A DNA stretch of 52,195 nt, taken from contig NZ_JANYMP010000019.1 of NCBI RefSeq assembly GCF_025061645.1, forward strand, positions 1 through 52,195. The letters are read 5' to 3'. The position numbers were made by a program, and so were the translations under genes. Below the pieces are notes generated by a model. The model had not been told where the DNA came from and made no database searches. It worked only from the letters and a program-made list of their open reading frames with translations. Source of the DNA: Umezawaea endophytica. Lineage in GTDB: Bacteria; Actinomycetota; Actinomycetes; Mycobacteriales; Pseudonocardiaceae. Positions 6,040 through 43,690 of this stretch are shown piece by piece; the first letter of the stretch is position 1; each line of letters begins with the position of its first letter.

Positions 6040-6068
6040 TTGACGCCACCGCGCGACCACCGCAGTCT
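6040..6068 (+). promoter_or_regulatory. Leaderless promoter of leader peptide 1
   Basis: TTGACG (6040-6045), 17 bp, CAGTCT (6063-6068), then 7 nt to the GTG at 6076. The spacing places the transcription start at or next to the GTG, so the transcript would be leaderless. The distance from -35 to start (36 bp) matches the two other leader cassettes in the window. Confidence 0.55.
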
Positions 6069-6075
6069 CGGAGGG

Positions 6076-6150
6076 GTGAACCGAGCCCAGCTCCTGACCC
6101 GACGCCGCCACGTGGACTTCGCGCGCACGTGTTCCTGCCGCTGTCCGTAG
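6076..6150 (+). CDS. 24-aa cysteine-rich leader peptide (sulfur-type attenuator)
   Basis: A GTG-initiated 24-codon frame ending TCSCRCP-stop, with the core LLTRRRHVDFAR. The same length and core (L-[LV]-T-R-x-H-[VI]-D-[FY]-x-R, then a C-P near the end) recur at 10989-11063 and 43581-43655, each ahead of a sulfur-linked gene. Short leaders of this style are known before sulfur genes in Streptomyces and cysteine-responsive leader frames are described in mycobacteria. The three Cys codons (TGT, TGC, TGT) near the stop suit ribosome stalling when cysteinyl-tRNA is scarce. The flavin reductase gene begins 44 nt downstream. The mechanism is inferred. Confidence 0.75.
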   Translation: MNRAQLLTRRRHVDFARTCSCRCP

Positions 6151-6194
6151 CCCAGGGACCACGCCGACTTCCCGTTGCCCAGCAAGGAGCCCTC

Positions 6195-6734
6195 ATGTCC
6201 GCACTCATCGGCACGCTGGTGGGCAACCCCCGCCCGGCCTCCAGGACCCTCAACGCCGCGCTGGCCCTGCGCGCGGCCCTGCGCCAGGTCCTCCCCTCCG
6301 CCGAGGACGGCGCCGTCGTCGACGCCGCGGAGCTGGCGCAGGACGTCTTCACCCCCGGCTCCACGAGCGTCAAGGACGCGCTGGCCTCGCTGGAGCGGTC
6401 GACCGTCCTCGTGGTCGCCTCGCCGACCTACAAGGCCACCTACACCGGCCTGCTGAAGGCCGTGCTGGACCAGGCTCCCGGCGGCTGGCTCAAGGGCAGG
6501 ATCGCCATCCCGCTCCAGGTGGCCGCGTCGGACAAGCACGCGCTGGCCGCCGAGCTGCACCTGCGCCCGGTCCTGGTCGAGCTGGGCGCCCACGTCCCCG
6601 GCCCGGCGGTCTTCCTCAACGAGGCGGTGCTGGCCGACCACGACGCCCTCATCGCCACCCTCGCGCAGCACCTGGTGGACACCGGAACGGCAGCCGTCGT
6701 GCGGGCGGCACTAGCGGCAGGGGCGTCTGGATGA
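6195..6734 (+). CDS. NADPH-dependent FMN reductase (SsuE/MsuE-like)
   Basis: 179 residues from ATG 6195, with AGGAG 6 nt upstream; a longer in-frame reading from 5814 crosses the leader peptide and is rejected. The protein has the flavodoxin-like pattern of this family: GNPRPASRTL near the N-terminus (phosphate loop for FMN), ELAQDVF, and SPTYKATYTGLLKAVLDQ (the isoalloxazine-contacting loop). SsuE-type enzymes use NAD(P)H to make reduced FMN for two-component monooxygenases such as the LLM enzyme at 11193. The stop overlaps the next start (ATGA), so it is translationally coupled to a second flavin reductase. The Cys-rich leader upstream implies control by sulfur status. Confidence 0.88.
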   Translation: MSALIGTLVGNPRPASRTLNAALALRAALRQVLPSAEDGAVVDAAELAQDVFTPGSTSVKDALASLERSTVLVVASPTYKATYTGLLKAVLDQAPGGWLKGRIAIPLQVAASDKHALAAELHLRPVLVELGAHVPGPAVFLNEAVLADHDALIATLAQHLVDTGTAAVVRAALAAGASG

Positions 6735-7231
6735 GCGTCGTACCCCGGCAGTCGAAGAGGGACCTCGCGGACGAGCTCAAGGGCGCCCTGCGCGACCACC
6801 CGCAGGCGGTCACCATCGTCACCGCCCAGGGCCCGGAGGGGCCGGTGGGCGTCACCGTCAGCTCCTTCACCTCGGCCAGCATGAACCCGCCGCTGATCGT
6901 CGTGTGGATCGGCGACGGCGCCTCGGCGTGGCCGGTGCTGCGCACGGCGCCGCTGTTCGCCGTGCACCTGCTGCACGCGGGCCAGAGCGACCTGTCGGAC
7001 CTGTTCGCCAGGACGGGCTCGGACCGCTTCGGCGACCAGACCAACTGGGAGTCCGACGTCGACGGGGTGCCGCACCTGCTGGACGCCCCGCTGCGGCTCC
7101 GCTGCCGCACGGCGAGGCGCATCGCCGTCGGCGACCACGTCGCGCTGGTCGGCGAGCCCTTGGAGGTCCAGCACACGGGCGGCACCCCGCCCCTGGTGAG
7201 GTTCCAGGGGCGTTATACGTCTGTGGATTAA
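6731..7231 (+). CDS. Flavin reductase family protein (DIM6/NTAB type)
   Basis: 166 residues, starting at the ATGA overlap with the previous gene. The sequence fits the split-barrel FMN-binding reductases that partner flavin monooxygenases: HPQAVTIVTAQGPEGPVGVTVSSFTS, NPPLIVVWI, FAVHLLHAGQSDLSDLF and a late GDHVALVGEPLEV. It probably delivers reduced FMN or FAD. Having two unrelated flavin reductases in one operon is redundant; one may serve the LLM monooxygenase and the other the FAD/NAD(P) enzyme encoded opposite. The gene ends 1 nt before the convergent gene, with no hairpin between them. Confidence 0.87.
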   Translation: MSVVPRQSKRDLADELKGALRDHPQAVTIVTAQGPEGPVGVTVSSFTSASMNPPLIVVWIGDGASAWPVLRTAPLFAVHLLHAGQSDLSDLFARTGSDRFGDQTNWESDVDGVPHLLDAPLRLRCRTARRIAVGDHVALVGEPLEVQHTGGTPPLVRFQGRYTSVD

Positions 7232-7232
7232 G

Positions 7233-9143
7233 TCAGGCCACGCTTTCGGCGTTGCCCGAGCCCTCGGCGGCCAGCAGGCGCAGGAGGGCTCGGGCAACGC
7301 CGTCGTTCTGCCGGAAGCCCGGCGCGTTCGTGCCCGGTCGGGCGAACGCGGCGAACGCGCGGCCGGTCGTGAACGGGCCAAGGGCGAACCGGCGGGGGTG
7401 CGCGGTGCCGTTGCGCTCGATCAGCCGGTTGTCCTCCGGTGAGACGCGCACCAGGCCCGTCGACCGGCCGTCGGACAGCTTCTCCTCCACGACGTCGCCC
7501 GCGCCGCGCAACGCCCGCAGCACCGGGTCGGCCGTGCGCCCCAGGCTGTGGGCGGGCAGGCGGGCCTCGACCAGCCCGGTGGCGCGCACGACGTCCGGCG
7601 AGCTGGCGCTGCCCGCCACGAACGCGCCGTCCTCGGCCCGCACCCACACGTCCGCCCCGAGGAAGTTCACGATCCCGGCCCGCGACAGCGCGAGCAGCTC
7701 CTCCAGGCGGTCCGGCGGCGGTCCGCTGGCGAGGAAGCTGAAGAACCCGCCCCACCACCCGTCGGCGTGCGCCAGCCGCGACGCCGGGGACAGCTTCGGC
7801 GAGTTCAGCACGCGCGGCAACTGCCCGTAGACCGACAGCAGCGCCATGAACGCCCCCAGGTCCGCGCTGAACGCCGGATCGGACCGCCGGGCGACGTCCG
7901 CCTCGACGTAGGCGCGCAGGTGCTCCTGGAACTCCTCACCGGTCGCGAACACCAACCCCGCCAACGGCCGGTCCAGCCGCTCGAAGTCGATCCGGTCCTC
8001 CACCAGCGGCACCGACGACTCGACCAGCGCCGCCATCCCGGTGCTGTACCAGGGCAAGCCGGCGAACTCGGCGGCGAACTCGTTCCACGGCAGGGCAACC
8101 CGCTCCGGGTGCCCGGTGAACAGCTCGTGGAAGTACCCCCAGGCGATCTCCTTGGCCAGCAGCGGCCACACGTCGGCCTGGAAGTCGAACTCGACGGGCG
8201 AGGCCAGCAGCTCGTCGACCACCTGCCCGTCGAAGAACCTGGGCAGCGGCAGGGGATCGCCTTGCAGCCGGTAGCCCGTCTTCGAGTGGTACGGCACGCC
8301 GCGCCGCGACCCGACGTGGATCCGCGGTTCACGGCCGGAGGGCACGTACCGCAGGCCGTCGGCGGACTCCTCGAACCGGCCGCCACGCCCCTGCGTGAGC
8401 AGCACCATCAGGTCGATGAACGCCAACCCGAACCCGCGCAGCACCACGTCGGCCCCCTCCCGGACCGAGGAGAGGTCGCTGTCGGCCGAGTAGTCCGGTG
8501 GCAGGTACGCCAGCCCGTTCGCGGAGGCGTAGTCGACCAGTTCCCGTTCCTCTGCCCCGATCTCGGCGTCCAGGTGCCCCAGCGTCAACACCACCGCGTC
8601 CGCCACCAGCGGCGTCGACCGGTCGGCGAGCCACACCCTCTGCCGCCCCTGCGGCGACCCGGTGATCCGCCGCACCGACGTGCGGTGCTGGTGCACGGTG
8701 ATCCCCGGCGGCAGCGCCTCGACCGCGTCCCGGAAGAACCACGCGAGGTACGCGCTCTGCAACCGCCTGCTGGGGAACGTCGTCGGCTCCAACCGGTCCA
8801 GCTCGGCCAGCACGTCGGCGGGGAGGTCCACACCGGACAGTCCGCCGGACGTCACCAGCCCGGCCCACTCGGCGAGCGACGGCCCCGGCCGCACCGGACC
8901 GTCGCACACGACGCTCGCGTCGGTGAACATCGTCACGTCCACCGCCATCGAGTTCATCCGCAGCAGCTCGGACTGCTCGTACCGCCAGACGCGCCCGGCG
9001 CCCGGCGGGTGCGGGTCGACGACGTGGACGTCCAGCGCCGCACCGGGGAACAGCTCCGGCGCGTTCACGGCGAGGCGCTCGACCAGCCCGGCCGCTCGCG
9101 GCCCGCCACCGACCAGCACGAGCACCACCGGCGGTGCGCTCAC
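7233..9143 (-). CDS. FAD/NAD(P)-binding oxidoreductase
   Basis: 636 residues from a GTG that overlaps the stop of the ABC ATPase gene (GTGA). The N-terminus is a Rossmann dinucleotide-binding motif ([14 protein letters not shown]), followed by [20 protein letters not shown], which is typical of the FAD-NAD(P)-binding family related to HcaD/ornithine-monooxygenase-like flavoproteins. A second nucleotide region lies around [11 protein letters not shown]. These large proteins often accompany uptake or oxidative catabolism of unusual substrates, but the reaction of this family is not established. Co-transcription with an amino-acid ABC importer suggests it acts on the imported compound. It is the last gene of the minus-strand operon. 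Confidence 0.8.
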
Positions 9144-9907
9144 AGCACCCTGGCCAGGAACTCGCGGGTGCGGGCGTGCCGGGGAGCGGACAGCAGCTCC
9201 GCGGGCGGCCCGGACTCGACCACCCGCCCCTCGTCCAGGAACACCACGGTGTCCGCGACCTGGCGGGCGAACGCCATCTCGTGGGTGACCACGACCATCG
9301 TCATCCCCGCTTCCGCCAGGTCGGCGATGACGGCCAGCACCTCGCCGACCAGTTCCGGGTCCAGCGCGCTGGTCGGCTCGTCGAACAGCATCAGCTTCGG
9401 TTCCATCGCCAACGCCCGCGCGATGGCGATCCGCTGCTGCTGACCGCCGGAGAGCTGCCGAGGGTAGGACTCCTCGCGGCCCGCGAGCCCGACGCGGGCG
9501 ATCAGCTCCTTGCCCAGCGCCACGGCGGCGGCGCGGGACAGGCCGCGCACGCCGATCGGCGCCTCGACCACGTTCTCCAGCACGGTCAGGTGCGGGAACA
9601 GGTTGAAGTTCTGGAACACCATGCCGATCGAGGCCCGCTGCTTGGTGATCAGCCGGTCCTTCAGCTCGTGCAACCGGCCCTTGTGACGGCGGTAGCCGAT
9701 CAGCTCGCCGTCGACCTCGACCTCACCGGCGTTGATCTTCTCCAGGTGGTTCACGCACCGCAGCAGCGTGCTCTTGCCGGACCCGGAGGGCCCGATCACG
9801 CAGGTGACCTCGCCCTGCCGCACCTCGAGGTCGACCCCGCGCAGCACCGGCGTCGTCCCGTAGCTCTTGTGCAGGTCGCTGATCCGCACGACCGTCGCGG
9901 CGCTCAT
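9140..9907 (-). CDS. Polar amino acid ABC transporter ATP-binding protein
   Basis: 255 residues from ATG 9907, which overlaps the permease stop (ATGA); a longer in-frame start at 9934 is possible but uncoupled. The ATPase motifs are complete: Walker [10 protein letters not shown], signature LSGGQQQR, Walker [13 protein letters not shown] and the switch His in VVVTHEM. It belongs to the GlnQ/HisP/TcyC group that drives import of polar amino acids. It pairs with the permease at 9904-10821 and with the binding protein at 12838-13785 on the opposite strand. Confidence 0.93.
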
Positions 9908-10821
9908 CGCAGCCGTCCCTTCAACCTCTGCCACGGCGTGGGCGGCAGGGCTCGTGCCGCGCCCCGCGCGTAGTACCGCTCGACGTAGTACTGGGCCACG
10001 CTCAGCACGCTCGTGACGACGACGTACCAGACGGTCGCGACGAGCAGCAGCGGGATGATCAGGTAGTTCCGGTTGTAGATGAGCTGGACGGAGAACAGCA
10101 GGTCCTGCACGGCCAGCACGCTCACGATCGACGTCCCCTTGAGGGTGCCGATCAGCGCGTTACCCGCGGCCGGGATGATCGAGCGCATCGCCTGCGGCAG
10201 CACGATCCGCCGCAGGATCCGGCCGCGGCCCATGCCCAGCGCCAGCGCTGCCTCGACCTGCCCCTGCTCCACCGAGATCACGCCGCCGCGGACGATCTCG
10301 GCGGCGTACGCGGCCTCGTGCAGCGTCAGGCCGATGATCACGGCGGCGAGCGGGCCGATCAGGTTGGTGGAGCTGATGCTCACGAAGTCCGGTCCGAACG
10401 GGATCCCGAAGGACAGCGTCGGGTACAGCGCGCCGATGTTGAACCAGAACAGGAGCTGCACCAGCATCGGCACGGACCGGAAGATCCAGACGTAGCCCCA
10501 GGCGACCCCGACGAGCACGGGGTTCCCGGACAGCCGCAGGACGGCGAGGACGGTGCCCAGCGCGAACCCGAGCACCAGCGTGAGGACGGTCAGCCACAGC
10601 GTGAGGCCAAGACCGCGGAGCACCACCTCAGCGGTGAAGTACTCGGCGACCACACTCCACTGGAAGGCCTCGTTGGTGATCACCGACCGCACGGCGGCGG
10701 CGAGCATCACCAGTACGACGACGGCGGAGATCCAGCGGCCGGGTCGGCGCAGCGGCACCACACCGGCGGCGGGGGTGGTTCGGGCGGTCGGAGGCGGCAC
10801 GAGATCGGTGGAAACGCTCAC
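9904..10821 (-). CDS. Polar amino acid ABC transporter permease
   Basis: 305 residues from GTG 10821, with GGAG 8 nt upstream; an upstream in-frame start (10947) would add 42 residues reaching into the divergent promoter. After a Pro/Arg-rich cytoplasmic N-terminus there is one extra transmembrane helix ([15 protein letters not shown]), then the His/Glu/Gln/Arg-type permease core beginning [20 protein letters not shown] and containing the coupling-helix signature [22 protein letters not shown]. It probably forms a homodimer in the membrane. The substrate is unknown; the sulfur-type leaders nearby favour cystine or an S-substituted cysteine (inference). Confidence 0.92.
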
Positions 10822-10953
10822 AGAAGGTCTCCGAAGACGAGGGACAGCACGGAAAACGGGTGCCGCGTCCCTCAACGCCGCATCCGATGGTAAACGCCCG
10901 CTGCGAGCAGAAGTCAAGGCTGTCCGAGGGTTGGACACCCATCCCACGTCTCG

Positions 10954-10982
10954 TTGACGTACGCCCGGAGCGCTGGTGCACT
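10954..10982 (+). promoter_or_regulatory. Leaderless promoter of leader peptide 2
   Basis: TTGACG (10954-10959), 17 bp, TGCACT (10977-10982), then 6 nt to GTG 10989. The -35 hexamer is identical to that of leader 1 and its distance to the start (35 bp) is nearly the same. The divergent importer operon starts at 10821, so the region is shared. Confidence 0.55.
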
Positions 10983-10988
10983 GGGGTC

Positions 10989-11063
10989 GTGGAAAGCCTG
11001 CGACTGGTCACCCGAGACCACATCGACTTCGGTCGAGTGTGGTCCGCTTCCTGTCCGCGCTGA
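10989..11063 (+). CDS. 24-aa leader peptide ahead of the LLM monooxygenase operon
   Basis: A GTG-initiated 24-codon frame with the core LVTRDHIDFGR and the ending SASCPR-stop. It matches leader 1 (6076) and leader 3 (43581) in length, in the L-x-TR-x-H-[VI]-D-aromatic-x-R core and in a Cys-Pro pair close to the stop. A GC-rich hairpin (11140-11162) lies between it and the structural gene, in a plausible place for an attenuator. It has only one Cys codon, so stalling may depend on the peptide as much as on cysteinyl-tRNA. Function is by analogy. Confidence 0.72.
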   Translation: MESLRLVTRDHIDFGRVWSASCPR

Positions 11064-11139
11064 GACCCACCGCCGAGCGCGTCTCCCTCAACGCCCGAAC
11101 TCGGCCAGTTCCCCCTTCACCCCACTACTGGGTTCCCGC

Positions 11140-11162
11140 ACGCCCGCGTCCGCCGCGGGCGT
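11140..11162 (+). promoter_or_regulatory. Candidate attenuator hairpin between leader 2 and the LLM gene
   Basis: ACGCCCGCG (11140-11148) pairs perfectly with CGCGGGCGT (11154-11162) around a 5-nt loop, ending 30 nt before the start codon. A CCCA-CTAC-TGGG stem lies just upstream and could compete. There is no T-run, so a Rho-dependent or structure-only mechanism is equally possible. Confidence 0.4.
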
Positions 11163-11192
11163 CTTCTCCGCACCACCACTGGGGAGTACGAC

Positions 11193-12347
11193 GTGCCTGT
11201 GGAATTTCTGGGTATCGGTGGCACCAACGACGGCTCGGAGACGAGCCCGCGCACCGGCGCCTCCTTCGACAAGGACTACACGCTCCGACTGGCCCGCGCC
11301 CACGAGGACAACGGCTGGGACCGCGTGCTGTTCGCCTACGGCTCCGGCTCGCCGGAGCCCGCCCAGGTCGCGGCCTTCGTGGCCACGAAGCTGGACAAGC
11401 TCCAGATCCTGTTGGCGCACCGCCCGAACGTCTCCTACCCGACGTTCGCCGCGAAGACGTTCGCCACGCTGGACCAGATCAGCGACGGCAGGCTGACCGT
11501 GCACTTCATCACCGGTGGCACGGACCACGAGCAGCAGCGCGAAGGCGACTTCCTGACTAAGGACGAGCGCTACGACCGGACGCGCGAGTACATCGGCATC
11601 GTCAAGAAGGCGTGGACCTCGCGCGAGCCGTTCGACCACGAGGGCACCCACTACCGGTTCGCCGACTTCGTCAGCGACACCTTCCCCTTGCAGCAGCCCA
11701 GGATCGGCGTCTCCTTCGGCGGGTCCTCCCCCGCCGCGTACCGCGCGGGCGGCGCCGAAGCGGACATCTACGCGCTGTGGGGCGAACCGCTGGCGCAGAC
11801 GGCGGAGCAGATCGAGTCCGTCAAGCAGGCGGCACGGGACGCGGGCCGCACGGACGTGCCCCGCATCCAGGTCGCGTTCCGCCCGATCCTCGGCGCCACC
11901 GAGGAACTGGCGTGGGAGAAGGCCTACCGGACCGTCGACGCGATCAAGGAGCGCACCAGGGGCGGCACGGCCGCGCTGACCCGGCGGCACTCGTTGAAGA
12001 ACCCGGAGAACACCGGGTCGCAGCGGCTGCTGGCGCTGGCGGAGCAGGGCGAGCGCTTCGACCGCGCGCTGTGGACGCCGACGGCGGCGGCGACCGGTGG
12101 CGCGGGCAACTCCAACGCGCTGGTCGGCACGCCGGAGACGGTGGCGCAGGCACTGCTGGACTACTACGACCTCGGCGTGGACATCCTGTCCGCCCGCGGC
12201 TACCACATCTTGAACGACGCCATCGACTTCGGCCGGTACGTGATCCCGATCGTCCGCGAGGAGGTCGCCAAGCGCGACGCGGCGCGCGCGGAGGCGGAGG
12301 CGAAGGCGCAGGAACCGGTGCGCGAATCCATCTCGGTCGACGGATGA
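11193..12347 (+). CDS. LLM-class FMN-dependent monooxygenase (SsuD-like)
   Basis: 384 residues from GTG 11193 with GGGGAG upstream. The protein is a bacterial-luciferase-like TIM barrel close to alkanesulfonate monooxygenases: FLGIGGTNDG, the flexible FDKDYTLRLARAHED region, VLFAYGSGSPEPAQVAAF, LLAHRPNVSYPTFAAKTFATLDQISDGRLTVHFITGG split over strands 3-4, and GVSFGGSSPAAYRAGG. Such enzymes use reduced FMN and oxygen to cleave carbon-sulfur or similar bonds and release sulfite or a thiol. Reduced FMN can come from the two reductases at 6195-7231. It is first in an operon with a GNAT and a binding protein and follows leader 2, so sulfur-limited expression is likely. Confidence 0.88.
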   Translation: MPVEFLGIGGTNDGSETSPRTGASFDKDYTLRLARAHEDNGWDRVLFAYGSGSPEPAQVAAFVATKLDKLQILLAHRPNVSYPTFAAKTFATLDQISDGRLTVHFITGGTDHEQQREGDFLTKDERYDRTREYIGIVKKAWTSREPFDHEGTHYRFADFVSDTFPLQQPRIGVSFGGSSPAAYRAGGAEADIYALWGEPLAQTAEQIESVKQAARDAGRTDVPRIQVAFRPILGATEELAWEKAYRTVDAIKERTRGGTAALTRRHSLKNPENTGSQRLLALAEQGERFDRALWTPTAAATGGAGNSNALVGTPETVAQALLDYYDLGVDILSARGYHILNDAIDFGRYVIPIVREEVAKRDAARAEAEAKAQEPVRESISVDG

Positions 12348-12838
12348 CGGTCAACCAGTTGGAGGTCCGCCGGGTCGACCCGGCGGACCCGCTCACCGGC
12401 CCGATGATGGCGGAGCTGACGCACGAGTACGTGACCCGCTACGGCGAGGACGCGCGGCAGGAGATGGCGCGCTACCCGACGGAGGTGTTCCGGCCGCCGG
12501 ACGGAACCCTGTTGCTGCTGCTGGAGGACGGCGTGCCGATCGCGGGCGGGGCGTTCAAGCGCTACGACGGGCGCACGGCGGAGCTGAAGCGGATCTGGAC
12601 CGGTTCGGCGCACCGCCGTCGCGGGCTCGGCCGCCGGGTCGTCGCCGAACTGGAGCGCGAGGCCGTCGCGCTCGGCTACCGGCGGCTCTACCTGACGACC
12701 GGGCCGCGGCAGCCGGAGGCGAAGGCCCTCTACCTCGTGCTCGGGTACACGCCGCTGTTCGACGTCTCGGCCGATCCGCTGACCATCGGTCCGCTGCCCT
12801 TCGAGAAGTCCCTGCCGTTCGAGAACACGACAAGCTGA
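12344..12838 (+). CDS. GNAT-family N-acetyltransferase
   Basis: 164 residues, ATGA-coupled to the LLM gene and sharing TGATG with the next start. The acetyl-CoA-binding loop is clear (RRRGLGRRVVAELE, motif A), preceded by AELKRIWTGSAH and followed by ALGYRRLYLTTGPRQPEAKALYLVLGY. Its place between an LLM monooxygenase and an amino-acid binding protein parallels the Bacillus subtilis yxe and ytm operons, where a GNAT acetylates S-substituted cysteines before oxidative cleavage. By that analogy it may acetylate the amino group of the imported compound; the acceptor is not shown by sequence. Confidence 0.87.
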   Translation: MTVNQLEVRRVDPADPLTGPMMAELTHEYVTRYGEDARQEMARYPTEVFRPPDGTLLLLLEDGVPIAGGAFKRYDGRTAELKRIWTGSAHRRRGLGRRVVAELEREAVALGYRRLYLTTGPRQPEAKALYLVLGYTPLFDVSADPLTIGPLPFEKSLPFENTTS

Positions 12839-13785: not shown

Positions 13786-13797
13786 CCCGTTCGGCCC

Positions 13798-16444: not shown

Positions 16445-16453
16445 CGCGAACTC

Positions 16454-17293: not shown

Positions 17294-17325
17294 GACCTCA
17301 TCCTACCGAGCAACCCCCGAAGACG

Positions 17326-27142: not shown

Positions 27143-27145
27143 CGG

Positions 27146-32620: not shown

Positions 32621-32624
32621 ACCA

Positions 32625-36806: not shown

Positions 36807-36857
36807 GACCGAAAACTACGAAGACCACCCCCGCGGGATCGTCACCCCGCGGAGCCA

Positions 36858-37511
36858 CTACCCCGGTACGACGAGCCCGCTCTCGTAGGCCGCGATCACG
36901 GCCTGGGCCCGGTCGCGCAGCCCCAGCTTCATCAGCACCCGGCCGACGTGGGTCTTCACCGTCTGCTCCGCGACGAACAGGTGCCCGGCGATCTCCCCGT
37001 TCGACAGCCCCTGCGCGATCAGCCGCAGCACCTCCGTCTCCCGCTCGGTCAACGAGGTCAGCTCGCGGGGCCGAACCCCGTGCGCGGGCTGGGACTTCAC
37101 GAAGTCCTCGATCAGCCGCTTGGTGATGGACGGCGCCAGCAGCGCCTCCCCGCGCGCCACCACCCGCACGGCGTCGAGCAGTTCCCGCGCGGGCGCGTGC
37201 TTCAGCAGGAACCCGCTGGCCCCGGCCCGCAGCGCCTCGTACACGTAGTCGTCCAGGTCGAACGTGGTCAGCACCAGCACCTTCACCGGGTGCGGCTCGG
37301 CGGCGAGCAGCCGCGTGGCCTCCAGCCCGTTCATCTCCGGCATCCGGACGTCCATCAGCACGACGTCCGGCAGCAGCCGCCGCACCGCGGCCACCGCGGC
37401 GATCCCGTCGCCCGCCGAGCCGACCACCTCGATGTCGGCCTGCGCGTCGAGCAGCGCGGAGAACCCCTCGCGCACCATCTCCTGGTCGTCGACCACGAGC
37501 ACCCTGATCAC
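36858..37511 (-). CDS. NarL/LuxR-family response regulator
   Basis: 217 residues from GTG 37511, GTGA-coupled to the kinase stop. The receiver (1-120) has the acidic pair Asp8-Asp9, the phospho-acceptor Asp54 (VVLMDVRMPEMNG), a switch Thr (VLTTFD) and Lys in FLLKHAP. The C-terminal LuxR HTH is LTERETEVLRLIAQGLSNGE followed by EQTVKTHVGRVLMKLGLRDR. It forms a two-component system with the upstream kinase. No target site is apparent, but the hydrolase-acyltransferase operon lies directly downstream. Confidence 0.95.
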   Translation of the reverse strand: MIRVLVVDDQEMVREGFSALLDAQADIEVVGSAGDGIAAVAAVRRLLPDVVLMDVRMPEMNGLEATRLLAAEPHPVKVLVLTTFDLDDYVYEALRAGASGFLLKHAPARELLDAVRVVARGEALLAPSITKRLIEDFVKSQPAHGVRPRELTSLTERETEVLRLIAQGLSNGEIAGHLFVAEQTVKTHVGRVLMKLGLRDRAQAVIAAYESGLVVPG

Positions 37512-38650
37512 TTGTCCCCCAACGGAATCAGCGCCCGGACCTCGAATCCGCCGTCGGCGGTGCCCGACGCGGTGAGCGACCCGCCGTGCACCGCGACGCG
37601 TTCCCGCATGCCGGTCAGCCCGTGCCCGCCGCCGCCACCCAGTGACGCGCCGCCCCGAGTATTGCGCACCACCACCTCCAGCGAGCCGTCCACCGCCCGC
37701 AGCACCACGGACACCGCGCCGCCGGGCTCGTGCCTGGCGGCGTTGGTCAGCGCCTCCTGGACGATCCGGTACGCGGTCAGCCCGACGGACTGCGACACGT
37801 CCAGCGGGGGCAGGTCGACGAAGGCGGACGCGCGGGCTGCCAGGTCGGGGATCTGCTCGATCCCCGGCTGCGGTGCCCGGTCGGCCTCCTGCCCCGCGCT
37901 GCGCAGCACCCCGAGCAGGCGCTGCATGTCCGTGATCGCCTCGCGGGCCGCCTCGCCGAGTTCGGCGAACTCGCGCACCCCGGCCTCCGGCAGGTCGGCG
38001 ATGCGGTAGGGGGCGGTCTCGCAGCGCACGACGACCATCGACATGTGGTGCGCCACGACGTCGTGCATCTCGCGCGCGATGCGCGCGCGTTCCACGAGCG
38101 CGCCCTTCTCCGCCCGTTCCCGCTCGATCTCCACCTCGGCCCGGCCGCGCGCGCCGAAGGCGTACCCGCCCAGCAGGACGAGCCCCAGCACGATCGCGGA
38201 CTCCGGGTAGTAGCTGACGCCCTTCAGCGCCCCCGCGAAGCCGAGCAGGCCCAGCGTGAGGAGGCCCGCCGTGCGCACGACCGAGCGCGAGTAGAGCAGG
38301 GCGACCGCGAGGACGGTGGGCAGGTAGAAGCACCACTGCCAGCCGCTCATCACCGGTTCGGCCGAGCCGTGCACCAGGACGTCGACGAACAGCCCGACCG
38401 TCGCGAGCCTCCACCCGGTCAGCGGGGAACGGACCAGCAGCCCGTAGGAGCCCGTGACGACCGCGAAGTACAGCGGCCAGACGCCGTCCGGTTCGTGGAG
38501 GTCCACGTACTCCACGCTCGCGATGATGGCGACCACGACGGAGTAGATCATGATCACAGCGACGCCGAACCGCCGGAAGCGGACCGGGAGCACGCCGAGA
38601 GCGGGTGTGTGGTCCCTCAGGGCCACTACCTGGAGCAAGGAACGCATCAC
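37508..38650 (-). CDS. Sensor histidine kinase (HisKA_3, NarL partner)
   Basis: 380 residues from GTG 38650; TAGCAT lies 6 nt upstream, so it may be leaderless, and ATG 38647 is equivalent. Four or five membrane helices (~25-165) form an input domain without a large extracellular loop. The dimerisation box is RIAREMHDVVAHHMS with the phospho-accepting His, and the ATPase part has QEALTNAARHEPGG and GHGLTGMRERV. The ligand is unknown; intramembrane-sensing kinases of this shape often answer envelope stress. Confidence 0.94.
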   Translation of the reverse strand: MMRSLLQVVALRDHTPALGVLPVRFRRFGVAVIMIYSVVVAIIASVEYVDLHEPDGVWPLYFAVVTGSYGLLVRSPLTGWRLATVGLFVDVLVHGSAEPVMSGWQWCFYLPTVLAVALLYSRSVVRTAGLLTLGLLGFAGALKGVSYYPESAIVLGLVLLGGYAFGARGRAEVEIERERAEKGALVERARIAREMHDVVAHHMSMVVVRCETAPYRIADLPEAGVREFAELGEAAREAITDMQRLLGVLRSAGQEADRAPQPGIEQIPDLAARASAFVDLPPLDVSQSVGLTAYRIVQEALTNAARHEPGGAVSVVLRAVDGSLEVVVRNTRGGASLGGGGGHGLTGMRERVAVHGGSLTASGTADGGFEVRALIPLGDK

Positions 38651-38824
38651 CAGCCGATGCTAGGTCGGTGGGCGGCGCCGGTCGTGCCGCCTCGGGGTGA
38701 CATACCCCGGTATCACCCCGTACGGAGGGCCGCAAGGCATTGCGGCACCCGATCACCAAGCGGTAGGCAGTGGGGACAGAGGACGGGCGAACCACGCCGC
38801 CGTCCCGTGTTGAAAGATGGTGCG

Positions 38825-39325
38825 ATGACCTCGCAGCACGATCCGGATCGCTGGTCCCGGCTGACCGCCGTGGCGGGCGAGGCCTTGGCCGCGGCCAAGG
38901 TCGGGGAGGACGCTGTCGCGGTCGACCTCGTGACCGGCTACCTCAGCGGTTCACCGGAGGGCAACGAGGAGATCAGGGAACTCGTGCTGCTGCTGTTCTC
39001 CGAGTGCAGCGGCATGGTCGCGGCGCTCGGTTCGGGCGGGGCGACGCCGGTGAAGATGCAGGTCTTCGACGAGGACGGCCAGGAGGTCCCGATCGACGAC
39101 GCGGACCCGCCGGTGCGGACCGCGATCCGTACTCTGCTCGCCGAGGTGCACGGCGACGAGGAAGCGGCGGCCGAGCAGATCGAGATCGCCCTCACGAACG
39201 GCGCTCCGCAGGAGCTGGCGACCGTCGTGCTCCAGGCGCTGAGGTGGACGGTGAAGCTGGCCGCGGAGTGCCAGACCCGCGACCTTGAAGTGCCTGACTG
39301 GATCACCACGTCGCTGGAGGAGTGA
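38825..39325 (+). CDS. Hypothetical acidic protein
   Basis: 166 residues from ATG 38825. The composition is acidic and mostly helical, without signal peptide, membrane segment or cysteine motif (only SECSG and AECQTR). Recognisable stretches are RLTAVAGEALAAAKVGEDAV, EIRELVLLLFSECSGMVAAL and LATVVLQALRWTVKLAAECQ. I do not recognise a family. It is divergent from the two-component operon and followed by the chitinase promoter, so it is probably a single-gene unit. Confidence 0.75.
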   Translation: MTSQHDPDRWSRLTAVAGEALAAAKVGEDAVAVDLVTGYLSGSPEGNEEIRELVLLLFSECSGMVAALGSGGATPVKMQVFDEDGQEVPIDDADPPVRTAIRTLLAEVHGDEEAAAEQIEIALTNGAPQELATVVLQALRWTVKLAAECQTRDLEVPDWITTSLEE

Positions 39326-39464
39326 CCGCTTCCCGCGGAATTGGGAAACCGAAAACCATTTCCGTTCCCTAATTGTCCGAAGCGCGAGCGACAGAGTATT
39401 TCCGATTCGCCCGAAACCGTTCCGGTCGTGCTCGCGCAAATGCGCTCACGGCCGGTTCACACCC

Positions 39465-39493
39465 TTGACACGGGCTCTGGTCCAGACCATTGT
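39465..39493 (+). promoter_or_regulatory. Chitinase promoter with DasR-type operator
   Basis: TTGACA (39465-39470) and a weak -10 CATTGT (39488-39493) at 17-bp spacing. Between them TCTGGTCCAGACCATT (39476-39491) contains the palindrome TGGTC-CA-GACCA and matches the Streptomyces DasR-responsive element consensus at 12 of 16 positions. The remaining upstream DNA (39326-39464) shows nothing else. Confidence 0.75.
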
Positions 39494-39571
39494 CAGTCCC
39501 TGACCAGCCCCGACCCTCCTGAGGTCGGACGTGGTCGCCCTGCACCCGCCACCTCCACTTCAGGGGCAACA

Positions 39572-41131
39572 ATGAAACTCCGACTCGGCGCGCTGCTCTG
39601 CCTCAGCGCGTTGGCCCTCACTTCCGTGACGTCCCCGACCGCTTCGGCGGCCGACGGCGTCACCGCGACCTTCACCAAGACCGGTGACTGGGGAACGGGC
39701 TTCGAAGCCCGGTTCACCGTCGCCAACAACGGCGCGAGCGCCCTCTCCTCCTGGCGCATCGAGTTCGACATGCCCTCCGGCAGCGCGATCACCAGCCACT
39801 GGGACGCCGACCTGACCCGCTCCGGCGACCACTACGTGGCCGTCAACAAGGGCTGGAACGGCGCGGTACCCGTCGGCGGCCAGGTGGGCTTCGGCGTCCT
39901 GGGCACCGGCTCCGGCTCACCCGTCAACTGCAAGGTCAACGGCGGTTCCTGCACCGGCGGCGGTGGCGGCGACACGACCCCGCCCAGCACCCCCACGGGC
40001 CTCGCGTCCACCGGCGCCACCGCGAACTCCGTGTCCCTGACCTGGAACGCGTCCAGCGACAACGTCGGCGTCACCGGCTACGACGTCTACCGCGACGGCT
40101 CGGTCGCCACGACCTCCACCGGCACGTCGGCCACGGTCGGCGGCCTGTCCGGGAGCACCGCCTACACGTTCACCGTCAAGGCGCGCGACGCCGCGGGCAA
40201 CACGTCCGGCGCCAGCAACCAGGTGTCCGTCACCACCAAGCCCGGTGGCGGCGACCCCGGTTCCGGCACCGCCGCCCCGTACCTCTACCTGGGCTGGGGC
40301 AACCCGCCGAGCCCGGCGGCGGTCATGCGGGAGACCGGCGTCAAGTGGTTCACCATGGCGTTCATCCTGTCCTCCGGCGGCTGCAACCCGGCGTGGGACG
40401 GCAGCCGACCGCTGTCCGGCAGCGCCGACGCGGCGGCCATCGCCGAGATCCGCGCCAACGGCGGTGACATCGTCCCGTCGTTCGGCGGCTGGAGCGGCAA
40501 CAAGCTCGGCCCGAACTGCTTGACGCCCGAGGCCCTCGCGGGCGCCTACCAGCAGGTCATCAGCGCCTACGGCCTGAAGGCGATCGACATCGACATCGAG
40601 AACTCCGACGAGTTCGAGAACGAGACCGTGCAGGACCGCATCCTGACCGCGTTGAAGATCGTCAAGCAGAACAACCCCGGCATCAAGACGATCGTCACGT
40701 TCGGCACCACGACGTCCGGCCCGAACTACTACGGCGGGCGGCTCATCGAGCGGGCGGCGGCGCTGAACGCGAACATCGACGTGTTCACGATCATGCCGTT
40801 CGACTTCGGCAGCTCGAACATCCAGAACGACACGATCGCCGCGGCCACCGGGCTGAAGAACAAGCTGAAGACGGCGTTCGGCTGGTCCGACTCGGTGGCG
40901 TTCGCCCACGTCGGCATCTCCGGCATGAACGGGCTGTCCGACCAGCAGGAGCTGACGTCGGTGGAAGCGTGGACCGCGATCCGCGACTGGTCGAAGTCCA
41001 ACGGCCTCGGGCGGCTCGCGTTCTGGTCGGTGAACCGCGACCGCGGCTGCCCCGGCGGCGGCGTCAACGCGTCGTGCAGCGGCATCTCCCAGTCCGACTG
41101 GGAGTTCTCCCGCATCACGGCCGGTTTCTAG
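39572..41131 (+). CDS. Secreted GH18 chitinase with CBM2 and fibronectin III domains
   Basis: 519 residues, ATG 39572. A signal peptide ends at ASA (26). Residues ~28-128 are a family-2 carbohydrate-binding module (WGTGFEARFTVANNGASALS, HWDADLTRSGDHY, closing Cys pair). A Gly linker and one FN3 domain (~140-222, DTTPPSTPTGLASTGATANS) follow. Residues ~232-519 are the GH18 barrel, with the catalytic DIDIE ending in Glu343 and FTIMPFDFG on strand 6. It hydrolyses extracellular chitin. The DasR-type site in the promoter predicts induction by N-acetylglucosamine metabolism. A terminator follows. Confidence 0.95.
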   Translation: MKLRLGALLCLSALALTSVTSPTASAADGVTATFTKTGDWGTGFEARFTVANNGASALSSWRIEFDMPSGSAITSHWDADLTRSGDHYVAVNKGWNGAVPVGGQVGFGVLGTGSGSPVNCKVNGGSCTGGGGGDTTPPSTPTGLASTGATANSVSLTWNASSDNVGVTGYDVYRDGSVATTSTGTSATVGGLSGSTAYTFTVKARDAAGNTSGASNQVSVTTKPGGGDPGSGTAAPYLYLGWGNPPSPAAVMRETGVKWFTMAFILSSGGCNPAWDGSRPLSGSADAAAIAEIRANGGDIVPSFGGWSGNKLGPNCLTPEALAGAYQQVISAYGLKAIDIDIENSDEFENETVQDRILTALKIVKQNNPGIKTIVTFGTTTSGPNYYGGRLIERAAALNANIDVFTIMPFDFGSSNIQNDTIAAATGLKNKLKTAFGWSDSVAFAHVGISGMNGLSDQQELTSVEAWTAIRDWSKSNGLGRLAFWSVNRDRGCPGGGVNASCSGISQSDWEFSRITAGF

Positions 41132-41139
41132 ACCTCTGC

Positions 41140-41181
41140 GACACGGGTGCCCCCGGCTACGCGCCGGAAGGCACCCGTGTC
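41140..41181. terminator. Bidirectional terminator overlapping the metX end
   Basis: GACACGGGTGCC (41140-41151) pairs with GGCACCCGTGTC (41170-41181), 12 of 12, with an 18-nt loop. The second arm lies within the last codons of metX, so one hairpin serves both convergent genes. Confidence 0.85.
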
Positions 41182-42233
41182 GGCAGTAGTTCCCTCACGA
41201 GCGCTCCGACCTGGTCGGACTCGATGAGGAACGCGTCGTGGCCGTAGTCCGACGTGACGACGCGCAGGTCGTCGGCGGTGGTGATGCCCGCGGCGAGTTC
41301 CGCCTGCTGCGCCAGCGGGAACAGCCGGTCGGTGTCGACGCCCGCGACGATCGTGCGGGCGGTGACGCGGCGCAGCGCGGCCCGCACCCCACCCCGGTCG
41401 CGGCCCACGTCGTGGCTGTTCATCGACTCGGTGAGGACGACGTAGCTGTCCGGGTCGAAGCGGCGGACCAGCTTGTCGGCGTGGTGGTCCAGGTAGGACT
41501 CGACGGCGAACCTGCCGTCCCCCTGGGGATCCCGCCCGAAGCGGGCCGCCAGCTCGGCCTCGGTGCGGTAGCTGATGTGCGCGATCCGGCGGGCGATCCC
41601 CAAGCCCAGCACGGGATCGGCGCGGACGGCGTGGACCTGGGTGGACGCCAGCGCGATCTGCTCGGCCGACGAGGCGGCGGGCGTCGCCAGCAGCAGCAAC
41701 GACCTCAGCCGGTCCGGGTGGCCTACGGCCCACTCGACCGCCCGCATCCCGCCCATCGAGCCGCCGAGCACGGCGGCCCACGCGTCGACGCCGAGCGCGT
41801 CGGCCAGCGCCACCTCGGCCGTGACCTGGTCCCGCGCGGTGACCAGCGGGAACCGGCTGCCCCACGGCTTCCCGTCCGGAGCGGCCGACAGCGGGCCGGT
41901 GGTGCCCTGGCAGCCGCCCAGCACGTTCGGGACGACGATGAACCAGTGCGCCGGGTCCAGCGGCCTCCCCGGCCCGACCAGCGCGTCCCACCAGCCCGGT
42001 GTGGGGTGGCCGGGTTCGACCACGCCCGCGACGTGGCTGTCACCCGTGAGCGCGTGCTCGACCAGGACCGCGTTGGAGCGGTCCGCGTTGAGCGTCCCCC
42101 AGGTCTCGTAGGCGATCTTCACGGCAGGCAGCCCGGCGAGCGGCCCGTCGTGGGAGTACCAGAGCCGACGCCCAGCGGGGTCCCCCTCGCGCCACCCGCC
42201 GGCGGCACGAGGGGTCTCTCCACCGGTGGTCAC
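41157..42233 (-). CDS. metX: Homoserine O-acetyltransferase
   Basis: 358 residues from GTG 42233, which overlaps the metY stop (GTGA). It has the alpha/beta-hydrolase acyltransferase signature: KIAYETWGTLNADRSNAVLV, HALTGDSHVAG, VPNVLGGCQGTTGP, nucleophile GGSMGGMRAVEW, Asp in GVDTDRLFPL and His in SDYGHDAFLIE. It makes O-acetylhomoserine from homoserine and acetyl-CoA, the substrate of the MetY enzyme encoded just upstream. The pair gives direct sulfhydrylation to homocysteine. Control is expected from the leader peptide at 43581-43655. Confidence 0.96.
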   Translation of the reverse strand: MTTGGETPRAAGGWREGDPAGRRLWYSHDGPLAGLPAVKIAYETWGTLNADRSNAVLVEHALTGDSHVAGVVEPGHPTPGWWDALVGPGRPLDPAHWFIVVPNVLGGCQGTTGPLSAAPDGKPWGSRFPLVTARDQVTAEVALADALGVDAWAAVLGGSMGGMRAVEWAVGHPDRLRSLLLLATPAASSAEQIALASTQVHAVRADPVLGLGIARRIAHISYRTEAELAARFGRDPQGDGRFAVESYLDHHADKLVRRFDPDSYVVLTESMNSHDVGRDRGGVRAALRRVTARTIVAGVDTDRLFPLAQQAELAAGITTADDLRVVTSDYGHDAFLIESDQVGALVRELLPTRVPSGA

Positions 42234-43531
42234 AGAGCGGACTTCGCCGCGCGGAACCCCGCCTCCAGGTCGGCCTTCAGGTCCTCCACGCCCTCGATCC
42301 CGACCGACAGCCGCACGAGACCAGGCGTGACACCCGTGGTGACCTGCTCCTCCGGGTTCAACTGGCTGTGCGTGGTGCTGGCCGGGTGCACGATCAGGCT
42401 GCGGACGTCGCCGATGTTCGCGAGCTGGCTGAACAGCTCCGTGCCGTCCACGAACGCCCGACCCGCGTCCACCCCGCCGCGCAGCTCGAACGACACGATC
42501 GCGCCCGCCCCCTTGGGCAGGTACTTCTTCGCGGTCTCGTGGAACGGGCTGGACGGCAGACCCGCGTAGTGCACCTTCTCCACCTCGTCGCGCTGCTCCA
42601 GCCACTCCGCGAGCGCTTGCGCGTTCGCCACGTGCTTGTCGATGCGCAGCGAGAGCGTCTCGATGCCCTGGATGATGAGGAAGCTGCTCAGCGGAGCGAT
42701 GGCGGCACCCGTGTCGCGCAGCAACTGCACGCGCAGCTTCGCCGCGAACGCGCCGTGCCCCAGCGCGGGCCAGTACTGGAGGCCGTTGTAGCTCGGGTCC
42801 GGCTCGTTGAAGTCCGGGAACCGCTCCGTGCCGAAGTCGAACGTGCCGCCGTCGACGACCACACCCGCGATCGTCGTGCCGTGGCCGCCCAGGTACTTGG
42901 TCGCCGAGTGCACGACGATGTCCGCACCGTGCTCGATCGGCCGCACCAGGTACGGCGTCGGCACCGTGTTGTCCACTACCAGCGGCACACCCACCTCGTG
43001 CGAGACACCGGCCACCGCGGCGATGTCCAGCACGTGCGCGCGGGGGTTCGCCAGCGTCTCGGCGAAGAACAGCTTCGTGTTCGGCCGGGCCGCCGCGCGC
43101 CACGCCTCCAGGTCGTCGGGGTCGTCCACGAACGTGACCTCGATGCCGAGCTTCGGCAGGGTGTAGTGGAACAGGTTGTACGTGCCGCCGTAGAGCGAGG
43201 CGCTGGACACGAAGTGGTCGCCCGACCGGGCGAGGTTCAGGATGGTCGCCGTGACGGCCGCCGAGCCGGACGCGAACGCCACGGCGGCGATCCCGCCCTC
43301 CAGCGCCGCCACCCGCTGCTCCAGCACGTCCTGCGTCGGGTTGTTGATGCGCGTGTAGATGTTGCCCGCTTCGGACAGGTTGAACAGCGCGGCACCGTGG
43401 GCGGTGTCGCGGAAGACGTACGACGTCGTCTGGTAGATCGGCGTGGCACGGGCGCCCGTGGCCGGGTCCGGCGTGGCTCCGGCGTGGACCTGCTTGGTCT
43501 CGAACGACCAGGCGGAGGCGTCTGCGGACAT
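42230..43531 (-). CDS. metY: O-acetylhomoserine sulfhydrylase
   Basis: 433 residues from ATG 43531, with AGGAG upstream; a GTG at 43552 is less likely. It is a Cys/Met-metabolism PLP enzyme: KQVHAGATPDPATGARATPIYQTTSY (split over the start), YTRINNPTQDVLEQRVAALEGG, SASLYGGTYNLF, and the PLP-Lys region VVHSATKYLGGHGTTIAG. It joins sulfide to O-acetylhomoserine to give homocysteine and can also accept methanethiol. It is first in the metY-metX operon, 49 nt behind the 24-aa leader peptide. Confidence 0.96.
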   Translation of the reverse strand: MSADASAWSFETKQVHAGATPDPATGARATPIYQTTSYVFRDTAHGAALFNLSEAGNIYTRINNPTQDVLEQRVAALEGGIAAVAFASGSAAVTATILNLARSGDHFVSSASLYGGTYNLFHYTLPKLGIEVTFVDDPDDLEAWRAAARPNTKLFFAETLANPRAHVLDIAAVAGVSHEVGVPLVVDNTVPTPYLVRPIEHGADIVVHSATKYLGGHGTTIAGVVVDGGTFDFGTERFPDFNEPDPSYNGLQYWPALGHGAFAAKLRVQLLRDTGAAIAPLSSFLIIQGIETLSLRIDKHVANAQALAEWLEQRDEVEKVHYAGLPSSPFHETAKKYLPKGAGAIVSFELRGGVDAGRAFVDGTELFSQLANIGDVRSLIVHPASTTHSQLNPEEQVTTGVTPGLVRLSVGIEGVEDLKADLEAGFRAAKSAL

Positions 43532-43580
43532 GGCTGTCTCCTGGGTTGTCACTCTGAGGCTGGGCGGGCTTCGGGGTGGA

Positions 43581-43655
43581 TCAAGCGCGGCCGGGACAGG
43601 CCATGCTGGTGACGCGCACGTAGTCGACGTGCCGCCTGGTCACGAGCAGACTCAT
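43581..43655 (-). CDS. 24-aa leader peptide of the metY-metX operon
   Basis: ATG 43655, 24 codons, with the core LLVTRRHVDYVR and the ending SMACPGRA-stop. Same length and layout as the leaders at 6076 and 10989, with Cys-Pro close to the stop. Its promoter places the ATG at the transcription start. It lies 49 nt before metY, so translation of the leader could control entry into or read-through toward metY when cysteine is limiting. No clear terminator hairpin lies in the short gap. Confidence 0.75.
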   Translation of the reverse strand: MSLLVTRRHVDYVRVTSMACPGRA

Positions 43656-43662
43656 GACAGCG

Positions 43663-43690
43663 ACGTTAGCTCCGTGGACCAATCGCGCAA
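43663..43690 (-). promoter_or_regulatory. Leaderless promoter of leader peptide 3
   Basis: On the minus strand: TTGCGC (43690-43685), 16 bp, TAACGT (43668-43663), 7 nt, ATG 43655. The -35 to start distance is 35 bp, as for leader 2. Confidence 0.55.

What the first reader, a model, noticed from the sequence alone, without database searches (positions are those of the whole stretch)
6040..43690. Three dispersed, near-identical 24-codon leader-peptide cassettes define a sulfur regulon
Leaders at 6076-6150, 10989-11063 and 43581-43655 are each exactly 24 codons, share L-[LV]-TR-x-H-[VI]-D-[FY]-x-R and a Cys-Pro near the stop, and have the -35 hexamer 35-36 bp before a start codon placed 6-7 nt after the -10. 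They precede flavin reductases, an LLM monooxygenase operon and metY-metX. The conserved mid-peptide core, beyond the Cys codons, suggests that the nascent peptide itself is sensed. Cysteine-responsive leader frames are known in mycobacteria; this core with three co-varying loci in one window is worth defining as a family.
Basis: partly seen in the sequence, partly recalled or inferred. Interest (0 to 1): 0.82.

Follow-up and report, generated by a model that had tools for sequence, protein, structure and literature searches.

The report
Probable cysteine-sensing leader peptides
Three tiny probable leader peptides sit in front of sulfur-related genes and belong to a widespread set of likely cysteine sensors in actinobacteria that is already partly known; a fixed peptide core, a rare cysteine codon and a cysteine-less relative suggest that the half-made peptide itself may help the ribosome sense cysteine.

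Summary
The three leaders are real and beyond chance, but not a new family confined to this window. The genome has ten; relatives occur in 40 of 40 genomes drawn from the family and 52 of 60 from the class. NCBIfam already models such peptides (Ms4527A, cis_reg_atten), though the three window leaders fall below every curated cut-off. Cysteine-responsive leader ORFs are published for mycobacteria.

Supported: sulfur-linked genes behind 94 of 155 leaders (by cluster representative); leaderless-type starts; amino acids L-x-x-R-x-H-[VI]-D-x-x-R-x-x-S-x-x-C conserved while synonymous sites vary. "Near-identical", "24 codons" and "Cys-Pro" are not defining.

New details: one Cys in 114 of 157 leaders, at a fixed distance from the core. 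Its codon is usually the rare UGU (97 of 100 outside two gene classes; 45 of 45 metY leaders). The spacer after the stop is C-rich and G-poor. In three genomes of the genus one leader has UGA in place of the Cys codon, with only synonymous differences.

Best model: pausing at UGU, helped by the nascent core, blocks Rho-dependent termination. Pausing, Rho and cysteine response are inferred. Shine-Dalgarno sequestration found no general support in folding tests.

The parts
6040..6068 (+). probable promoter of leader 1: -35 TTGACG 6040-6045, -10-like CAGTCT 6063-6068
   Evidence: read by eye; aligned upstream profile of 151 leaders shows the same geometry; consensus scan negative
6076..6150 (+). 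leader peptide 1, GTG start, VNRAQLLTRRRHVDFARTCSCRCP*, Cys codon at +11 TGT
6151..6194 (+). spacer between leader 1 and gene, candidate Rho-loading stretch; Shine-Dalgarno AAGGAG near its end
   Evidence: composition tested over loci, not for this one alone
6195..6734 (+). NADPH-dependent FMN reductase, SsuE-like (below TIGR03567 cut-off)
   Evidence: Pfam PF03358 1.4e-20
6731..7231 (+). flavin reductase domain protein
   Evidence: Pfam PF01613 7.7e-34
10954..10982 (+). probable promoter of leader 2: -35 TTGACG 10954-10959, weak -10-like TGCACT 10977-10982
   Evidence: read by eye; TTGAC at the same place in congeners L079, L080; consensus scan negative
10989..11063 (+). leader peptide 2, GTG start, VESLRLVTRDHIDFGRVWSASCPR*, Cys codon TGT
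11064..11192 (+). spacer before the LLM gene, C-rich by eye, candidate Rho-loading stretch
   Evidence: composition tested over loci
11193..12347 (+). luciferase-like monooxygenase resembling alkanesulfonate monooxygenases (below their NCBIfam cut-offs)
   Evidence: Pfam PF00296 5.6e-62; NF001939, TIGR03565
12838..13785 (+). family-3 extracellular solute-binding protein, probable end of the same operon
   Evidence: Pfam PF00497 3.3e-26
43663..43690 (-). probable promoter of leader 3: -35 TTGCGC 43690-43685, -10-like TAACGT 43668-43663
   Evidence: read by eye; consensus scan negative
43581..43655 (-). leader peptide 3, ATG start, MSLLVTRRHVDYVRVTSMACPGRA*, Cys codon TGT
   Evidence: core leaders upstream of metY in 45 of 80 loci
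43532..43580 (-). spacer before metY, C-rich by eye, with AGGAG
   Evidence: composition tested over loci
42230..43531 (-). metY, O-acetylhomoserine/O-acetylserine sulfhydrylase
   Evidence: NF005872 812.6 bits, over cut-off 703; PF01053
41157..42233 (-). metX-like gene, homoserine O-acetyltransferase by position and alpha/beta-hydrolase fold
   Evidence: PF00561 5.3e-16; the name metX is inference

Best explanation
Each cassette is a leaderless leader-peptide attenuator that tunes sulfur-acquisition genes to cysteine supply. RNA polymerase starts at or next to the leader's start codon and a ribosome follows at once. When cysteinyl-tRNA is scarce the ribosome pauses at a single, probably slowly read UGU codon placed exactly 11 residues after the conserved His; the nascent core (L..R.H[VI]D..R) then lies in the upper exit tunnel and probably strengthens the pause. 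The paused ribosome keeps Rho off the C-rich, G-poor spacer that begins at the stop codon, so transcription runs into the operon. With ample cysteine the peptide is finished and released, Rho loads and transcription ends early. Shown by computation: selection on the peptide sequence, fixed geometry with usually one Cys, UGU preference, C-rich spacer, leaderless-type starts, mostly sulfur-linked genes. Inferred: pausing, cysteine response, tunnel action, Rho.
For: Core and spacing: 157 leaders (of 174 loci examined) have Arg(-2) and Asp(+2) in 157, Arg(+5) in 154, His in 150, Cys(+11) in 154. Peptide-level selection: 58 synonymous against 11 non-synonymous differences between congeners, pN/pS 0.069. 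One Cys in 114 of 157 leaders. Cys(+11) codon TGT in 111 of 154 against 15% in genes, 26 of 340 (8%) under another gene call and 9 of 78 (12%) when the next base is C; other Cys codons in the leaders TGC 39, TGT 6. Leaderless-type starts: SD-like sequence in 11 of 151, C at -1 in 72%, -35/-10 register. Spacer (C-G)/(C+G) 0.25 (152 loci), 0.32 in its first 30 nt (133 loci), against 0.02 upstream of the leader, 0.06 in 89 control 5' regions (p 4e-13) and -0.02 in 35 metY loci without a leader. No intrinsic-terminator-like site near the three leaders. Sulfur-linked genes downstream of 94 of 155 by cluster representative. Reversed-model control 4 matches, real model 205, in the same 40 genomes.
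Against: No expression, ribosome-profiling or termination data. C-richness fits Rho but does not prove it; the control 5' regions may not be transcribed, and next to the RBS (-60 to -20) the difference is smaller (p 4e-4). NIR/SIR-reductase leaders (35 UGC, 11 UGU) and TauE leaders (5 UGC, 3 UGU) break the UGU rule. Ser(+8) and Cys codon bias could also mark an RNA element that I did not find. A ribosome at the Cys codon would cover only the very start of the C-rich stretch. 56 of 151 leaders have neither an SD-like sequence nor a -10-like match. Core conservation differs between sets: in the C42 set of congeners 2 synonymous and 4 non-synonymous differences, in the metY pair 4 and 3. Some downstream genes have no evident sulfur role (ROK regulator, acyl-CoA-dehydrogenase-like). 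One leader of the genus has no Cys, so not every copy can be a Cys-codon sensor. Most leaders were collected with a model built from the core, which inflates core conservation.
Confidence: 0.55

Rival explanations
1. Translational attenuator: as in the mycobacterial poly-Cys leaders, the leader mRNA base-pairs with the Shine-Dalgarno of the next gene, and a ribosome paused at the Cys codon breaks that pairing and opens the gene to translation.
For: Published for M. smegmatis (Canestrari 2020; the SD detail is recalled; cited as attenuation or translation attenuation in passages of PMC9031893, and PMC13236596). Leader-to-own-RBS duplex slightly stronger than to other loci's RBS at the Cys window (t -2.2, 116 loci). 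In six cysteine-dioxygenase leaders a modelled pause at Cys raises SD accessibility by 0.18.
Against: Over 137 loci a modelled pause at Cys raises SD accessibility by 0.023 (t 1.8), no more than at many other codons. Native codons around Cys give no more structure than synonymous random ones (mean z -0.17 to 0.74 in the ten largest gene clusters).
Confidence: 0.25
2. Plain codon-demand sensing: only the Cys codon matters; the core is conserved for another reason, for example efficient leaderless initiation or ribosome speed before the sensor.
For: UGU preference shows that the codon itself is selected; Cys-rich variants with a weaker core exist (L255, L280, L283).
Against: The distance from the start codon (as chosen by my script) to Leu(-5) ranges from 1 to 11 codons while Cys is at +11 in 154 of 157; synonymous codons at core positions vary nearly as in genes; the Cys-less leader keeps the core with 9 synonymous and 0 non-synonymous differences summed over three pairs.
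Confidence: 0.25
3. The peptides act in trans as small proteins after release, for example by binding a regulator or metal through His, Asp and Cys.
For: Purifying selection on the peptide.
Against: Ten separate copies in this genome, each in front of its own gene; ends outside the core vary; codon choice at Cys and the spacer composition point to action in cis.
Confidence: 0.05
4. DNA- or RNA-level element: the core is a binding site or an RNA fold and the reading frame is incidental.
For: Nucleotide bias at the Cys and Ser(+8) codons.
Against: Third positions of core codons vary while amino acids do not; no selected local fold; no Rfam match at gathering threshold in the window or in 40 of the 80 metY loci.
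Confidence: 0.03

Closest known systems
Poly-Cys leaderless short ORFs of mycobacteria (Canestrari et al. 2020, Mol Microbiol; Shell et al. 2015, PMC4633059, passages)
   Same: Leaderless short ORF in front of cysteine/sulfur genes; attenuation that depends on cysteine there
   Different: Usually one Cys at a fixed distance from a core, not a run of Cys codons; SD sequestration not found in general here. The Canestrari paper is not held: known from recall and from citing passages
NCBIfam NF042936 leader_Ms4527A, NF042934 cis_reg_atten, NF042933 leader_Ms5788A
   Same: 63, 63 and 25 of 72 diverse leaders match at E<=0.01 (72 picked from the 147); 4 of the 10 leaders of this genome pass the NF042934 cut-off
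   Different: The three window leaders are below all curated cut-offs
Candidate cys leader peptides without terminators in Mycobacterium, P. acnes and B. longum (PMC1262725, 2005)
   Same: Cys codons near the stop, no intrinsic terminator; the authors suggested Rho-dependent termination as in tna and called the prediction rather weak (passages)
   Different: There runs of Cys codons and non-conserved poly-Y motifs; here a measured C-over-G excess in 152 leader loci
TnaC / tna operon of E. coli
   Same: Leader peptide of 24-36 residues with conserved residues at fixed places before the arrest site; a stalled ribosome keeps Rho from acting (passages of PMC3902921). Asp16 to Pro24 is 8 residues, as Asp(+2) to the P-site residue would be here (inference)
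   Different: TnaC answers to free tryptophan and stalls when it is plentiful; no sequence relation tested or claimed
B. subtilis SinR serine sensor (PMC3862929, abstract)
   Same: Synonymous codon choice sets sensitivity to amino-acid starvation; ribosome density there is lower at AGC/AGU than at UCN; Ser(+8) here is AGC/AGT in 119 of 141
   Different: Codons inside an ordinary gene, not a leader peptide; the analogy is inference

Membership tests
Poly-Cys leaderless attenuators of mycobacteria | short ORF translated from a leaderless transcript | tested here: inconclusive
   SD-like in 11 of 151, C at -1 in 72%, -10-like without SD in 84, neither in 56; no TSS mapping
Poly-Cys leaderless attenuators of mycobacteria | run of cysteine codons | tested here: not met
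   114 of 157 leaders have one Cys; window leaders have 3 (not adjacent), 1 and 1
Poly-Cys leaderless attenuators of mycobacteria | lies in front of cysteine/sulfur genes | tested here: met
   FMN reductase, alkanesulfonate-type monooxygenase, metY; NIR/SIR reductase, SsuC-like, TauE, cysteine dioxygenase elsewhere
Poly-Cys leaderless attenuators of mycobacteria | pause at Cys frees a sequestered Shine-Dalgarno | tested here: not met
   no general effect in 137 modelled loci; a fold model, not an experiment
Poly-Cys leaderless attenuators of mycobacteria | downstream expression responds to cysteine | not testable with these tools
   needs culture
NCBIfam NF042934 cis_reg_atten | score at or above 27 bits | tested here: not met
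   window leaders 19.4, no hit, 21.6 bits; four other leaders of the genome pass
NCBIfam NF042936 leader_Ms4527A | score at or above 45 bits | tested here: not met
   24.7, 23.7, 23.8 bits, E about 1e-5: related, not members by the curated rule
Rho-dependent leader attenuator (tna-like) | C-rich, G-poor stretch after the leader | tested here: met
   skew 0.25 in 152 loci against 0.06 in 89 controls
Rho-dependent leader attenuator (tna-like) | Rho-dependent premature 3' ends relieved by a stalled ribosome | not testable with these tools
   needs 3'-end mapping with and without bicyclomycin
Ribosome arrest peptides | residues conserved at a fixed distance from the arrest codon | tested here: met
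   Cys at +11 from the core in 154 of 157; collected mostly with a core-based model
Ribosome arrest peptides | stalling in vitro that depends on those residues | not testable with these tools
   needs toeprinting

The most novel reading that the evidence does not exclude
The class-wide core is a new arrest peptide: the nascent chain turns one UGU codon 11 residues downstream into a cysteine sensor, so no run of Cys codons is needed. In one genus the sensor codon has become UGA in front of an SDF-family symporter gene, and the peptide, still under selection, would act at termination instead, as TnaC does, answering to a different signal.
Probability: 0.35. Interest if true: 0.78.

Novelty: new member of a known kind. 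Interest (0 to 1): 0.52.

Why it matters
How actinobacterial cysteine leaders without terminators work was left open by the 2005 survey. The set described here gives direct tests: swap UGU for UGC, swap core residues, compare the natural UGA leader with its natural Cys-bearing relatives, map Rho-dependent ends. If the core is an arrest peptide it would be a widespread one in this class of bacteria and would explain how a single codon can serve as a sensor.

Tried and rejected
RNA hairpin around the Cys codon: looked convincing by eye in single loci, but native codons are no more structured than synonymous random ones (ten largest clusters). Anti-Shine-Dalgarno pairing: striking by eye in single loci (NIR/SIR reductase, metY), weak over 116 non-redundant loci. 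SD release by a paused ribosome: no general effect. Riboswitch in metY loci without a leader: none at gathering threshold (20 of the 35). Intrinsic terminators near the three leaders: none. UGU preference as a next-base effect: rejected, genes show 9 of 78 TGT before C. Read-through of UGA in the Cys-less leader: the sequence after UGA is not conserved by eye in the three genomes. First broad DNA pattern was too loose (284 places, reversed control 98).

Counts and drops: of 174 loci (L049-L222) 157 were kept; 17 dropped, being 12 chance matches in the window's own genome (L059-L070, E 0.46-9.6) and 5 loci (L169, L196, L198, L208, L215) where my script did not find the leader at the expected place. 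Of the places listed only a part was fetched, the better-scoring ones first. Gene starts were assigned by script for 155 of 157 and some are wrong (for example L051, whose gene was read by eye and its congeners); SD tests used 137 and 148 of them, the duplex test 116 non-redundant ones. Gene classes rest on one scanned representative per cluster; not all of the 32 clusters were scanned. The NIR/SIR-reductase class has ferredoxin-nitrite reductase as its best NCBIfam match, below cut-off; I take it as sulfite reductase because the leaders and the mycobacterial precedent (recalled) point there. The metY set shares at least one contig with the 157 (L238 and L143).
Full report
What is in the window. 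The three leader ORFs exist as described, with 24 sense codons each; the third is on the minus strand. The core pattern occurs 3 times in the window against 0.04 expected in 100 dinucleotide shuffles, and a full-core short ORF 3 times against none in 200 simulated windows; both patterns were drawn up after seeing the leaders. They lie in front of an SsuE-like FMN reductase with a flavin reductase, a luciferase-like monooxygenase close to alkanesulfonate monooxygenases with a solute-binding protein, and metY with a metX-like gene. Promoter geometry by eye: -35 starts 36, 35 and 35 nt before the start codon; the consensus scanner sees none of these promoters.

Correction of the description. The first leader has one residue more between TR and H than the stated motif. 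In an alignment of nine leaders of this genome L, R, H, D and R are invariant (L-x-x-R-x-H-[VI]-D-x-x-R), and eight of the nine have Cys 11 residues after His. Length and Cys-Pro vary.

The genome. A model of the nine leaders finds those nine with E below 1e-7 and a tenth at E 0.013 in front of a DUF4395 gene. Genes behind the six others outside the window: an NIR/SIR-family reductase (taken as sulfite reductase), an SsuC-like permease, an ABC permease closest to cystine permeases, a second SsuE-like FMN reductase, a ROK regulator and an SDF-family symporter (some by cluster representative or by eye). Three of ten leaders in 52 kb of 11 Mb is a cluster; all three are present in the same neighbourhood in one congener, G001, at 4.461, 4.466 and 4.497 Mb.

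The wider set. Matches occur in 3 of 3 genomes of the genus (E<=0.001), 40 of 40 drawn from the family, with 205 matches at E<=0.01 (my sum of the column), and 52 of 60 drawn from the class; each draw includes the window's own genome. The same model reversed gives 4 matches in 4 of the same 40 genomes, all in open frames of 269 codons or more. A search from metY itself, without use of the core, kept the best 80 of 570 loci, named, largely Pseudonocardiaceae and Streptomyces; 45 carry a core leader within 500 nt upstream with scores of 19.4-43.7, the other 35 score 12.2 or less. One of the 35 (L255, Saccharopolyspora) has a degenerate, Cys-rich relative.

What is conserved. In 157 leaders Arg(-2) and Asp(+2) are invariant, Arg(+5) 154, His(0) 150, Leu(-5) 146, Ser(+8) 141, Cys(+11) 154; the other three have a stop codon at +11. 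Because these were found with a core model the numbers are upper bounds. Codon entropy at core positions is near that of genes (for example Arg(-2) 1.80 against 2.00 bits, Val(+1) 1.31 against 1.48), though with some bias (chi-square 11-29 at Leu(-5), Arg(-2), Val(+1), Asp(+2) and Arg(+5)). Between congeners the 17 core codons differ by 58 synonymous and 11 non-synonymous changes summed over pairs, pN/pS 0.069; sets differ, and two of eight go the other way or are near even (C42 2 and 4, metY 4 and 3). So amino acids are selected, not only the Cys codon.

The Cys codon. It is TGT in 111 of 154 leaders, against 15% of Cys codons in the genes behind, 26 of 340 under a second gene call and 9 of 78 when C follows. 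Other Cys codons in the same leaders are TGC 39, TGT 6. By gene class: 97 of 100 outside two classes, 11 of 46 in NIR/SIR-reductase leaders, 3 of 8 in TauE leaders, and 45 of 45 in the metY set. Ser(+8) is AGC/AGT in 119 of 141, 29% in genes. I read this as tuning of the pause; in B. subtilis AGC/AGU serine codons are less sensitive to serine starvation than UCN (PMC3862929, abstract). That bacteria read both Cys codons with one tRNA is recalled, not tested.

The Cys-less leader. In the three genomes of the genus the leader of the symporter gene ends ...KSTG-UGA; three relatives in the family have Cys UGU at that place in front of genes of the same cluster (L116, L130, L144). The three peptides are identical, with 9 synonymous differences summed over the three pairs. 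The sequence after UGA is not conserved by eye, which argues against read-through.

After the leader. The spacer is C-rich and G-poor: skew 0.25 over the whole spacer (152 loci) and 0.32 in its first 30 nt (133 loci), against 0.03 in the leader ORF, 0.02 upstream, 0.06 in 89 control 5' regions and -0.02 in 35 metY loci without a leader; 0.28, positive in 36 of 36, in metY loci with a leader and a gap over 50 nt. Close to the RBS the difference is smaller. This is the composition expected of a Rho-loading site. The 2005 survey of Actinobacteria proposed Rho for mycobacterial cys leaders and called it rather weak (PMC1262725, passages). Tests for the alternative, Shine-Dalgarno release, were negative in general, with six cysteine dioxygenase leaders as a possible exception.

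Known or new. NCBIfam holds Ms4527A, cis_reg_atten and Ms5788A; 63, 63 and 25 of 72 diverse leaders match at E<=0.01, four of this genome's ten pass the cis_reg_atten cut-off, none of the three in the window does. Pfam gives no match to the 72 at E<=0.01, Rfam none to the window at gathering threshold. The mycobacterial poly-Cys paper could not be read; I rely on recall and on citing passages. The titles and abstract starts listed by my ten paper searches show nothing on the UGU preference, the fixed core-to-Cys distance or the UGA variant; subscription papers are mostly absent from that library, so this is no proof of novelty.

Verdict. Real, sulfur-linked, most likely cysteine-responsive leader attenuators; a new member of a known kind, with regularities that make the nascent-peptide and Rho readings testable.

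Noticed in passing
L057 (own genome C44:54348-54407), L083, L084: Leader with the core but UGA where the Cys codon should be, in front of an SDF-family symporter gene; identical peptide in three genomes of the genus.
   Followed up: yes
L058 (own genome C15:230146-230208): Tenth leader, MYVLLTKRLAVDLCRVHSSLCRTMR*, with Ala for His, in front of a DUF4395 gene; passes the cis_reg_atten cut-off.
   Followed up: partly
G026:C7:97829/98021, G035:C1:4018904/4019053, G061:C251:3242/3432, G086:C11:87825/88023: Pairs of leader matches on opposite strands some 90-135 nt apart, pointing away from each other: divergent operons each with its own leader.
   Followed up: no
L238 / L143 (6431-base contig): Record titled Candidatus Melainabacteria carries a metY and leader like those of actinobacteria; contig length equals that of G013:C931, so the title is probably wrong.
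   Followed up: no
window 7233-10947, minus strand: FAD/NAD(P)-binding-protein-like ORF, ABC ATPase-like and permease-like ORFs lie between leaders 1 and 2, divergent from leader 2; by eye a possible importer with no core leader found in front of it.
   Followed up: no
L147, L171, L174, L182, L185, L186: Leaders of a gene cluster whose representative is a cysteine dioxygenase: a breakdown enzyme, so the sign of control may differ; of the eight largest clusters the one where a modelled pause at Cys opens the Shine-Dalgarno most.
   Followed up: partly
L255, L280, L283: metY leaders with several Cys codons and a weakened core (Ala or Val for His), as if Cys runs and core could replace each other.
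   Followed up: no
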